Source of the DNA: Panaeolus papilionaceus
Lineage: Eukaryota > Basidiomycota > Agaricomycetes > Agaricales
Direction: 5' to 3'
Length of the DNA stretch: 64,000 nt
Assembly (NCBI GenBank): GCA_015501605.1
Contig: JADNRZ010000027.1
Span: 434,001-498,000, forward strand
The position numbers were made by a program, and so were the translations under genes. This document shows positions 4,391-10,267 of this stretch, piece after piece. A model generated the notes under the pieces. That model saw only the letters and a list, made by a program, of their open reading frames with translations. It made no database searches and was not told the origin of the DNA. Positions within the stretch are counted from its first letter, which is position 1. Every line of letters begins with the position of its first letter.

Positions 4391-5384
4391 ATGGATCCGC
4401 TTCTTAAAAAGGTAATTGGTAACTCAGCAGTCGAGTTTTCCACATCCGGTGATATTTCAAGAGTCATTGTTCAGGCCCAGTTTCCGACAGTTATTATGTC
4501 CAGCGATACAGATGTTGAGGTGATGCCTAGGGGCTATACTCCGCAATTGACAGAAGACAGAGGTAAATGTTAAAACATTTGTTTGTGTATACACGTTGAT
4601 CTCGACATCACTAGAATTCGAAAAGGAGCCCCTATTGGAAGATGATAAGTCCCGTTTTGTTGTATTTCCAATCCAATACCATGAGGTAAGACTTACCACG
4701 TTCTATATGGTGTATGTTTATCGTTTGCGGTATAGATTTGGTCGTTTTACAAGAAAGCTCAAGCGTCGTTCTGGACTGCAGAGGAGATAGATCTCTCACA
4801 CGACATGAGTCATTGGGAGTCTTTGTCAAATCCAGAGCAGCAGTTTATTCTGAAGGTGTTAGCATTTTTTGCGGCATCTGACGGAATTGTGGTGGAAAAT
4901 CTAGTTGAACGCTTTGCAGCAGAAGTTAAGGTCGTTGAAGCACGATGTTTCTATGGATTTCAGATCATGATGGAGAACGTCCATTCAGAAGTATATTCAC
5001 TTTTAATCGATTCATATGTGAAGGATCCTCGGGAGTGCTGGTTATTGTTTCATGCTATGGAACATTTGCCGTGTGTGGAAAGGAAGGCACGTTGGGCGTT
5101 GGAGTGGATAGCCGATCAGTCTCACAGCTTTGGAGAGCGTTTGGTTGCATTTGCTGCTGTAGAGGGCATATTTTTTTCGGGGTCATTTTGCGCTATATTT
5201 TGGTTGAAGAAGCGTGGATTAATGCCGGGATTAACTTTTTCAAACGAACTCATTAGTCGGGATGAGGGTATGCATACGGATTTCGCGTGTCTACTACTCA
5301 ACTATGTCCGGAAACGGCCATCGCGGGATTCCATCGAGTCTATTATTTTAAGCGCTGTACAGGTTGAAAAAGCTTATATACATG
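4391..5384 (+). CDS. Ribonucleotide reductase small subunit (R2), exons 1-3
   Basis: Class Ia R2 subunit, which holds the diiron-tyrosyl radical cofactor used by R1 to make dNTPs. Exons are 4391-4562, 4615-4685 and 4736-5384; introns are GTAAAT..CTAG and GTAAGA..ATAG. Diagnostic blocks are KEPLLEDDKSRFVVFPIQYH, FWTAEEIDLS (Asp ligand), VVENLVERF (Glu ligand), ARCFYGFQIMMENVHSE (radical Tyr, His and Glu ligands), AAVEGIFFSGSF and SNELISRDEGMHTDFAC (Glu and His ligands). All ligands and the radical tyrosine are present. After AYIH the reading ends at donor GTAAGC (5385). The intron runs through CTAAT to ATAGATA and is then broken by a transposon tip. The missing end lies at 9941-10267 on the other strand. 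Confidence 0.95.
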
Positions 5385-5431
5385 GTAAGCTTACAGGCAT
5401 TGCTGAATAGGTCAGTAGACTAATAGGTTCA

Positions 5432-5438
5432 ATAGATA
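5432..5438. repeat. Target-site duplication ATAGATA (R2 intron side)
   Basis: ATAGATA at the end of the truncated R2 intron 3. It recurs (on the minus strand) at 10265-10271 beside R2 exon 4. One copy touches the left tip of the 58-bp element, the other the outer tip of the 10.5-kb KDZ element. Together they mark a single original insertion site in the R2 gene. The duplication is 7 bp, or 6 bp if the first base of the element is counted as variable. Confidence 0.75.
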
Positions 5439-5496
5439 CAGCCTTAGTGGCTAGATTCATGCACTCACTCATGCATGAGACCAGCCCCTACAGGTG
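5439..5496. mobile_element. 58-bp minimal KDZ derivative (two tips joined)
   Basis: The first 25 bp (CAGCCTTAGTGGCTAGATT then CATGCA) match the right outer tip of the 10.5-kb element. The remaining 33 bp (CTCACTCATGCATG then AGACCAGCCCCTACAGGTG) match its left outer tip. It therefore contains both termini and almost nothing between. It lies between the R2 intron (ATAGATA) and the Helitron helicase (CGTCGC), so its two flanks come from different loci. It could be an extreme internal deletion or a footprint of aberrant transposition. Confidence 0.75.
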
Positions 5497-5497
5497 C

Positions 5498-8470: not shown

Positions 8471-8647
8471 TTTACAACTAGTGGGTGATATGGTTAATGA
8501 CGTATACATTTGACTTGATTATGCTTCTGAAACTTTGAACTCCTGTAATGAAACCAAACTCAAACACGCTCTAAAACGCTAAAAACTACATAATATGAGC
8601 TGTCGATCCTACTTTATTTCTCTTGATTGCTGAGTAACTAGTCCCAC

Positions 8648-9858
8648 ATGGATATCTATACGCCGTCTCCTTATCCTCGAGACGGACTCTATGGTCGAAT
8701 AACCGATTGTCTCCGAGATCCAACCATCCATGATAACTTTCTCGGCAGCTCCAGTTTCGATCTAGGTGCAGACACATGTCTTCACTGTCTGCATCCTCTG
8801 GGACCTACGAGGAGCTACCTCTACAATTTGAAATGGAAACACCCTCGCGAAGGCATGCATTCCGCATGCCTCATCGGCCAGTTAACGTTTGAGGGCGGGA
8901 GATCAAAGATAGGCGCTCAGGGCGCTTGGGAACCGTCTTCAAATGCATTGGTAAGTCCATTTGGTCGGAAATAACAACATACCTATTCATTTTTGCCTTC
9001 CATTCCATTTCCCCGGCTTCTACTCCATCAATGACAGACTATCAATGATAAAACCATCTGCCGAAACCAATATACGCTGGAATGCCCCGCACTTGCAACG
9101 AAGGATATTCAGTTGATGTGGGATATCCAATTGGGGCAATGCGTGCATCTAATCGAGACGATTGAACAACAGACCTTTGCGAGTATTTCTTTTTATTTAG
9201 TTCTTGCATGTCGCTTACACTGAGCATTTATGTCTAGTCTGAAATGCAAAACACTCCACTATCACCCTCTCTTAATAGTCAGACTTGCAACATCATCGTA
9301 CACGGTTCACCAATTTACACAGTGCGTTACGTTCCGCTTAAATTTCTTTTTCTGACACACCTGCCTAGTTGCCACATACGCAGCCTGGTCCCTTCCGCAG
9401 TACACGACCAGACGCTCCTATATTTGTGTCACGTTCATGGCAGTTTTCGAACGCGAATTTCTTACGAATGAGGCACAGCATTAACTGGGGTGAATTCCGA
9501 CCGTTACATCTTTAAACTTCCCTTTAATCACATTTCATCAGCACTCCCAAGTGACTTGTATCAGACTTTCCCATTGAATTGCCTTCCTGACCACTCCGGA
9601 TCGATCTTTGAACAAGCCCACGCAACCGTTAAGCAACCAGAAGTGTACGACGCCGATTGCCAGCTGATACGCCCATGGGATTTGCCATCAAAAATGGAGG
9701 AAGGTTCGCTTTTGCTTTGCGAGGGGGGGTTTCACATGCGTATGCATCCCAATGAACGACCTGTATGTGCTTCATATTGTCAACCAAATTTACATTATCG
9801 ACCTTATGATGTGACAGACATTGTCCTTCCTCACGCAATGCATAACCATTTTGGATAG
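8648..9858 (+). CDS. Helitron cargo paralogue D
   Basis: Fourth paralogue, on the opposite strand to A-C only because of the inversion. Exon 1 (8648 to about 8950) has LRDPTIHDNFLGSSSFDLGA, like C. Donor GTAAGT splices to an exon at about 9039 (after CAATGACAG) with TICRNQYTLECPAL and MWDIQLGQCVHLIE. A further exon reads CNIIVHGSPIYTVRYV (about 9288). The final exon (from about 9490) has LPDHSGSIFEQAHATVKQ, PEVYDADCQLIRPWDL and SLLLCEGGF, with a stop at 9858. It lacks the basic C-terminal tail of C. It starts about 180 bp downstream of the helicase stop. Function unknown; no recognised domain. Confidence 0.6.
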
Positions 9859-9940
9859 TGCGACTGACATGTATTCTGCTAATTTTGATTAAACTCTTGC
9901 TCGCTTATACTACATCATGAACAGGCGATGAAATTGATCG

Positions 9941-10267
9941 TTAAAAATCCTCGTCGATAGAGCTGTAAAATATTATAAATATATTCGTGTACTATGACTA
10001 TAACTTACAATTCGAAAGCCTTCCTATTTCTCTCCTGCCCCGATGAACACGGGGAAGTATTAACACGTGCACACGCATACTCTCCTACTCGGCGTTCAAA
10101 GAAATTGCTTTTGCCTTCCATGGAAATTAATTCCATAAAATCAAAAGGATTGCTTGATTTGAAAATCGATTCGCAACCGAGACACAGTAATAACCGATCT
10201 GCAATGAATTCGATGTAAATGCACAATGACCTCGAATTCATTCCAACAAGGTCTTGGGGAAGAATAT
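9941..10267 (-). CDS. Ribonucleotide reductase small subunit (R2), exons 4-5
   Basis: Displaced 3' end of the R2 gene. Exon 4 (10267-10009) begins right after an AG acceptor, preceded by ATAGATA. It encodes DILPQDLVGMNSRSLCIYIE, FIADRLLLCLG, NPFDFMELISMEGKSNFFE and RRVGEY, the conserved R2 C-terminal helices. Donor GTAAGT at 10008 and acceptor TTTTACAG give a 46-bp intron. Exon 5 (9962-9941) encodes the last residues FSIDEDF, the R1-binding tail typical of eukaryotic R2. Phase matches exon 3 (CATG plus AT). Exons 1-5 total 1173 nt, exactly 390 codons plus stop, which supports the model. Without exons 1-3 this piece cannot make a functional protein. Confidence 0.93.

What the first reader, a model, noticed from the sequence alone, without database searches (positions are those of the whole stretch)
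4391..10267. Complete ribonucleotide reductase R2 gene carried inside a Helitron region, cut in two
Exons 1-3 (plus, 4391-5384) and exons 4-5 (minus, 9941-10267) together give exactly 1173 nt (390 codons plus stop), with all diiron ligands, the radical Tyr and the terminal FSIDEDF tail. Seen directly: motifs, splice sites and phase. Known: this set is the class Ia R2 signature. Inferred: the gene is Helitron cargo, since it sits between helicase and related cargo genes. A dNTP-synthesis gene in a rolling-circle transposon would parallel RNR genes of large DNA viruses and may help replication; alternatively it is a host locus hit by the Helitron.
Basis: partly seen in the sequence, partly recalled or inferred. 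Interest (0 to 1): 0.9.

Follow-up and report, generated by a model that had tools for sequence, protein, structure and literature searches.

The report
Jumping gene carrying ribonucleotide reductase R2
In a mushroom (most likely Panaeolus papilionaceus), large rolling-circle jumping genes called Helitrons carry a gene for the small subunit of ribonucleotide reductase, the enzyme that makes DNA building blocks, which likely helps the element pay for its own copying; in this window that gene lies in two pieces, most likely because other transposons landed in it and flipped the part between them.

Summary
In detail: five exons, 1173 nt, 390 codons plus stop, all class I R2 ligands and the radical Tyr, exons 4-5 inverted. 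The R2 gene is Helitron cargo. The genome has seven R2 loci: a head-to-head pair without a Helitron nearby and five others, one a pseudogene. Three of the five lie between matching ends of Helitrons with open 2299-2415-aa RepHel frames; for one (C8, 21.5 kb) three paralogous empty sites, 94-97% identical, show clean insertion. In the window a decayed relative took two Kyakuja (KDZ) transposons, in RepHel and in R2 intron 3; their swapped 7-bp target duplications indicate that the part between them flipped. A short derivative pairs the element's 5' end with sequence at window 1-160, so R2 lies inside. Synonymous sites are saturated while ligands are kept, which points to selection. A role in dNTP supply with the host's single R1 gene is inferred; two of the five copies are intact, and the origin (one capture or more) is open. 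My literature searches found no Helitron with a ribonucleotide reductase.

The parts
4391..4562 (+). R2 exon 1
   Evidence: splice model
4615..4685 (+). R2 exon 2
   Evidence: splice model
4736..5384 (+). R2 exon 3 (diiron ligands, radical Tyr); 649 nt, same length as in C1b, C5 and host2
5385..5438 (+). 5' part of R2 intron 3; ends in ATAGATA, one half of a 7-bp target duplication
   Evidence: without Kyakuja the intron is 51 nt, GT..AG
5439..5496 (+). Kyakuja remnant, 58 bp, both ends joined, CA..TG
5497..8470 (+). helicase (PIF1) part of RepHel, inverted
8649..9858 (+). cargo gene of family X; 9472-9855 matches the X gene beside R2 in C1b, C5 and C8 (37-45% identity); start and end read by eye
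9941..9962 (-). R2 exon 5 (tail FSIDEDF)
10009..10267 (-). R2 exon 4, inverted
10272..20784 (.). full Kyakuja (KDZ) transposon, 10,513 bp, CA..TG; KDZ domain in 17642-18412, CxC2 in 16711-17295
20785..24131 (-). Rep part of RepHel (Helitron_like_N, DUF6570), in two frames with a deletion
24399..24420 (-). Helitron 5' end, TCCCACTACTTTAGTAGTGGGT; first base set by analogy with the C8 empty site
2909..4090 (-). cargo gene of family X2 (match 2909-3199, 45-52% identity to X2 of C8, C1b, C5), head to head with R2; start read by eye
1..160 (-). 3'-proximal Helitron sequence; goes on about 213 bp left of the window, to where another insert cuts it
   Evidence: 81% over 387 bp to a short derivative on C18

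Best explanation
The window holds a decayed Helitron2-type rolling-circle transposon of a lineage that carries a complete ribonucleotide reductase R2 gene between its ends, which likely supplies dNTPs for the element's copying, and in this copy R2 lies in two halves, most likely because two Kyakuja transposons that had landed in RepHel and in R2 intron 3 recombined and flipped the part between them. Shown: in three related elements of the genome (C1b, C5, C8) R2 lies between the 5' and 3' Helitron ends; the C8 element has exact empty sites; in the window the 7-bp duplications are swapped between the two Kyakuja copies, and the flanks put together give a 51-nt GT..AG R2 intron and an open RepHel frame across the junction. 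Inferred: the Helitron R2 protein pairs through its C-terminal tail with the host's only R1 and makes dNTPs available when the element replicates, as the R2 genes of large DNA viruses are held to do (recalled); the pair of R2 genes on C1 would remain the housekeeping ones.
For: Seven R2 loci (14 exon matches), RepHel beside four of them; 18 Helitron_like_N matches in all, so R2 marks a minority of Helitrons. Shared 5' TTCCCGCAACTTT and 3' AAGTTGCGGGCTTCGCCATG..., an asymmetric inverted repeat with a 3' hairpin; 11 and 20 genome matches to the 3' and 5' patterns against 0 for the reversed controls; four short copies read with both ends. Empty sites for the 21.5-kb C8 element at C3, C34 and C23, 97, 96 and 94%, a fourth at 80%. 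Flanks: full Kyakuja CGTCGCG/ATAGATA, remnant ATAGATA/CGTCGCT, i.e. swapped. C18 derivative joins window 24422-24232 to window 160 and leftwards. Order RepHel - X - R2 - X2 in all four, in the window after undoing the flip. Ligands and Tyr in 4 of 4 non-pseudogene copies; pS 0.84-0.94 against pN 0.20-0.30 among them. NFFERRV, KSNFFE and FCAI(F/Y)W in 4 of 4. Tail exon in C1b and C5: 2 of 2000 shuffles each. One R1 gene.
Against: No expression or biochemical data. Two of five copies are intact: C8 has a 3.9-kb insert in R2 beside an open RepHel frame, the window copy is flipped apart, C23 is a pseudogene. The exact 3' end of the window element was not found. C5 gave no empty site; C1b was not tested. 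X and R2 are turned the other way in the window element than in the other three. Public models of C1b and C5 (P0001, P0002) lack the tail that I predict. If the copies were captured separately, part of the constraint seen could date from host genes. One origin is not shown by the trees. The Kyakuja test is not clean: of three other full copies, C54 has a matched 7-bp duplication, C14 the same 7 letters with one extra base, C5 none.
Confidence: 0.74

Rival explanations
1. R2 is a passive passenger: Helitrons picked up a host R2 gene and it has no role in transposition.
For: Helitrons capture genes (PMC4289320, passages); three of the five copies are broken, and C8 keeps an open RepHel with a broken R2.
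Against: R2 stays with RepHels that are only 30-57% identical, with saturated synonymous sites and all ligands kept; the order of cargo genes is kept.
Confidence: 0.22
2. Helitron R2 serves the host: it is an extra R2 gene that benefits the fungus (for example under DNA damage), and the Helitron only carries it.
For: The fungus already keeps two further R2 genes, head to head; extra copies could add dose.
Against: Three of five copies are broken; no host function is known.
Confidence: 0.1
3. Two or more separate captures: C1b/C5/C8 from one source (fungal or viral), the window's R2 from the agaric second R2 paralogue. This concerns origin and can hold together with the best explanation.
For: Trees put C1b, C5 and C8 together (100/99) and the window copy in the agaric R2-2 group.
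Against: Long branches; the four grouped together, weakly (93/45), in a first tree with fewer agarics; one clade of the four is not rejected (p-AU 0.224); shared NFFERRV, KSNFFE and FCAI(F/Y)W, shared splice sites, shared gene order.
Confidence: 0.35
4. A host R2 locus was hit by a Helitron and a Kyakuja.
For: Only the window, read alone, would allow it.
Against: Three other Helitrons with R2 between their ends, one with empty sites; the derivative on C18 brackets the window R2.
Confidence: 0.02

Closest known systems
Helitron2-type FoHeli elements of Fusarium oxysporum (PMC5148889, passages read)
   Same: RepHel, asymmetric terminal inverted repeat, hairpin near the 3' end
   Different: FoHeli1 and 2 are about 6 and 5 kb; the three bounded elements here are 17-22 kb with R2 and further cargo genes
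HELPO1 Helitrons of Pleurotus ostreatus with cap genes (PMC4289320, passages read)
   Same: agaric Helitrons with one to four genes downstream of RepHel
   Different: cap genes of unknown function; the word reductase does not occur in the main text
TET/JBP-carrying transposons, Helitron2 and Kyakuja among them (PMC12730594, passages read)
   Same: an enzyme gene of likely benefit to the element spread as cargo
   Different: that enzyme works on methylcytosine, not on dNTP supply
R2 genes of large DNA viruses (role recalled; R2 genes of IMG/VR contigs fetched)
   Same: mobile DNA with its own R2
   Different: no R1 in these elements (the genome's only R1 is on C71); the gene keeps splice sites of the fungal genes

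Membership tests
Helitron (RepHel) | Helitron_like_N and PIF1 helicase in one protein | tested here: met
   window pieces by Pfam; Helitron_like_N in open frames of 2328, 2415 and 2299 aa in C8, C5, C1b, which align with the window's Rep and helicase pieces
Helitron (RepHel) | precise insertion without target duplication | tested here: met
   C8 element, three empty sites AAAT|AAAT; not shown for the window element, C5 or C1b
Helitron1 | 5' TC and 3' CTRR | tested here: not met
   5' TC is there, but the 3' end is ...ATTGT
Helitron2 | asymmetric terminal inverted repeat and 3' hairpin | tested here: met
   C1b, C5, C8; window element: 5' half only
Helentron | endonuclease domain in the element | not tested
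   the RepHels of the three open elements were not scanned whole
class Ia R2 (PF00268) | six diiron ligands and radical Tyr | tested here: met
   4 of 4 copies C1b, C5, C8, C20; C23 lacks one and has a stop
class Ia R2 (PF00268) | C-terminal tail that binds R1 | tested here: met
   tail sequence only: FSIDEDF in the window, SVNEDF in C8, predicted from a 19-nt exon in C1b and C5; binding not testable here
class Ia R2 (PF00268) | radical and activity with R1 | not testable with these tools
   needs protein
Kyakuja (KDZ) | KDZ transposase, CA..TG ends, 7-bp target duplication | tested here: met
   of three other full copies C54 has the duplication, C14 has it one base off, C5 not; in the window it is seen after swapping (7 of 7 and 6 of 7). 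Feature list from PMC12730594, passages

The most novel reading that the evidence does not exclude
A lineage of agaric Helitrons encodes its own ribonucleotide reductase small subunit, which takes over the host's R1 to make dNTPs for rolling-circle replication outside S phase: transposons that, like large DNA viruses, bring their own nucleotide supply.
Probability: 0.5. Interest if true: 0.88.

Novelty: new variant of a known kind. Interest (0 to 1): 0.77.

Why it matters
Where rolling-circle transposons get dNTPs, and whether they copy outside S phase, is open (my knowledge, not looked up). A Helitron lineage that keeps an R2 gene makes the question testable in a mushroom, and would add metabolism to the cargo that a eukaryotic transposon carries for its own use. 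It also warns that R2 counts in agaric genomes may include transposon genes: C1b and C5 are annotated as ordinary R2 proteins (P0001, P0002).

Tried and rejected
Host locus hit by a Helitron: rejected. 38-nt inverted repeat as an invertible switch of its own: rejected, it is a Kyakuja terminus. Viral origin of R2: not decided. With 14 R2 genes of viral contigs the C1b/C5/C8 group sits beside them and one database protein (93/77); the four Helitron R2s plus the viral ones as one clade are not rejected (p-AU 0.393); shared splice sites speak for a fungal gene. Agaric host R2s plus the four as one clade: p-AU 0.023, long branches; the four plus the agaric second paralogue: p-AU 0.15, without the window copy 0.088. 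C23 was left out of the trees for its long branch (7.4). Rows used: 43 of 120 listed proteins, 40 of 220, 65 of 120 RepHels (FastTree). Helitron R2 in other species: among the 220 distinct proteins listed only P0001 and P0002 (this fungus) hold both NFFERRV and FCAIFW; each search scored about 8000 candidates and listed 120, so this does not show absence. RepHel kin: three from P. cyanescens, on contigs of 5-26 kb; R2 beside them could not be looked at. dN/dS could not be given as a ratio (synonymous saturation). Pfam gave no match over its cut-off for seven frames of the X, X2 and further cargo genes. A complete 3' end of the window element was sought and not found. Papers: searches; of three papers I read passages, of the others I saw listings only.

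Full report
The observation. Pfam places exon 3 in Ribonuc_red_sm at E 4e-86; the best solved relatives are R2 chains at E about 1e-138. The six metal ligands and the Tyr are present. Exons 4-5 are on the other strand, 4.9 kb away.

The genome. The window is G000:C20:434001-498000 of a 50.9-Mb assembly. The protein of one of its R2 genes is listed for Panaeolus papilionaceus on a contig of 3,436,105 bases, the length of C1, so this is most likely that species. R2 gives 14 exon matches at seven loci; R1 gives one gene, on C71. Two R2 genes lie head to head on C1 (2851k and 2853k) with no match to the window's RepHel in the 40 kb fetched around them; they group with agaric R2 genes, and one has Asn at a ligand place. 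I take these as the host genes. The other five are C1b (C1:340k), C5 (999k), C8 (457-462k), C20 (window) and C23 (2401k). C23 has an in-frame stop and lacks a ligand, so it is a pseudogene. Helitron_like_N has 18 matches in the genome; R2 lies beside four of them.

R2 inside Helitrons. Next to C1b, C5 and C8 lies an open RepHel frame of 2299, 2415 and 2328 residues, with R2 2 to 4 kb downstream on the same strand. Comparing the regions with each other gave a 49-bp block of 96% identity far beyond R2 in C1b and C5; reading it and the sequence upstream of RepHel gave the ends, 5' TTCCCGCAACTTT and 3' AAGTTGCGGGCTTCGCCATGC. The inverted repeat is terminal at 5' and some 35-40 bp inside at 3', in a hairpin, as described for Helitron2 (PMC5148889, passages). 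R2 lies between the ends in all three. Genome-wide the 3' pattern has 11 matches and the 5' pattern 20, their reversed controls none; four short copies that I read have both ends, about 0.3 to 1.1 kb apart.

Mobility. The flanks of the C8 element, joined, match three other places of the genome end to end at 97, 96 and 94%, and a fourth at 80%. The three empty sites that I read go ...GTCGCAAAT|AAATGTCA..., the filled site ...AAAT[TCCCGC...ATTGT]AAATGTCA: a clean insertion without target duplication. The inserted unit, 21.5 kb, includes R2. The same test on C5 found only separate flanks, the right one a repeat; C1b was not tested.

The window copy. A KDZ-family transposon fills 10272-20784; its terminal repeat recurs in pairs on C14, C54 and C5 and once on C33. 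A 58-bp remnant with both ends of the same kind sits at 5439-5496. The C54 copy has a matched 7-bp duplication and CA..TG ends; C14 has the same 7 letters on both sides with one extra base; C5 has none. 7 bp and CA..TG are the features given for Kyakuja (PMC12730594, passages). In the window each copy has two different flanks, CGTCGCG/ATAGATA and ATAGATA/CGTCGCT; exchanged, they give ATAGATA twice and CGTCGC(G/T), 6 of 7 alike. So, by inference, one copy had landed in R2 intron 3 and one in RepHel, the part between flipped, presumably by recombination between them, and one copy lost its inside. The joined flanks give a 51-nt GT..AG intron and an open RepHel frame across the junction. Before the flip the order would have been RepHel, X, R2 (opposite strand), X2. 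The RepHel has also lost about 100 residues and changed frame.

Bounds of the window element. Its 5' end is at 24420. A short element on C18 matches window 24422-24232 at 93% and then C20 from window 160 leftwards over 387 bp at 81%; it reaches the 3' inverted repeat of this type 60 bp further on and breaks off inside the hairpin, which is complete in copies on C24 and C5. R2 at 4391-10267 is thus inside. In C20 the last stretch is cut by another insert with 7-bp duplications AGGATTG, of a kind that also interrupts R2 in C8; the very 3' end was not found.

Selection and origin. Among the four non-pseudogene copies synonymous differences are saturated (pS 0.84-0.94) and replacement differences are 0.20-0.30 over 300-301 codons. 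RepHel identities are 30-57%, R2 53-68%. The cargo genes X and X2 recur with R2 in the same order. Exon 3 is 649 nt in the window, C1b, C5 and host2. NFFERRV, KSNFFE and FCAI(F/Y)W are in 4 of 4 Helitron copies; among 218 other R2 proteins listed, NFFERRV occurs in 4, KSNFFE in 5 (Crucibulum P0248 in both) and FCAIFW in 1; the pseudogene C23 has the first two, not the third. The trees do not settle the source. A first tree grouped the four weakly (93/45). With more agarics C1b, C5 and C8 form one group (100/99) and the window copy falls with the agaric second R2; C1b is as like R2 of Entomortierella (69%) as C5. One clade of the four is not rejected (p-AU 0.224); long branches are in play. RepHels of the four, with three from P. 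cyanescens, form one group (support 100, FastTree).

Mechanism. Shown: a mobile unit with an R2 gene whose protein has been conserved. Inferred: the protein works with the host's R1 through its tail and raises dNTPs for the element's replication. The tail is seen in the window copy and C8; in C1b and C5 it rests on a 19-nt exon of a kind that 2 of 2000 shuffles each give and that the public gene models do not have. That C8 keeps an open RepHel with a broken R2 shows that R2 can be lost without the frame of RepHel decaying at once.

Novelty. Searches for Helitron or rolling-circle transposon with ribonucleotide reductase, and for transposon cargo with it, listed no report that by title and abstract describes such an element; the Pleurotus Helitron paper does not hold the word reductase in its main text. 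Closed journals and Repbase were not searched.

Noticed in passing
L010/L011, G000:C1:2851009-2854073: Two R2 genes head to head; one has Asn in place of the first metal ligand Asp (EEINLS), reminiscent of yeast's second R2 (recalled). Gymnopilus dilepis has two R2s on contigs of the same length, 60001, so probably one contig (P0255, P0292).
   Followed up: partly
L026/L027, G000:C8:457950-461860: R2 of the C8 Helitron is interrupted by a 3.9-kb element with 1.37-kb inverted repeats; similar elements lie left of the window at C20:429.3-433.8k and on C23.
   Followed up: partly
C8 element, region coordinates (add 440000): X 22646-23965, X2 12233-13520, further gene 13779-15267: Recurrent cargo gene families without a Pfam match over cut-off, found again in C5 and C1b.
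   Followed up: partly
window 26700-64000: Tandem and inverted duplications about 65-84% alike, with related frames such as 28246-28854, 34171-34782 and 60419-61198; two of these were scanned and have no Pfam match.
   Followed up: partly
window 47828-48805: Frame with a Spt5 KOW domain (E 1e-7) and a weak Spt5 NGN match; integrase-like frame at 40300-41385.
   Followed up: no
L029-L030, G000:C20:416377: A second, distant Helitron with a 2073-residue RepHel frame about 18 kb left of the window, with no R2 match near it.
   Followed up: partly
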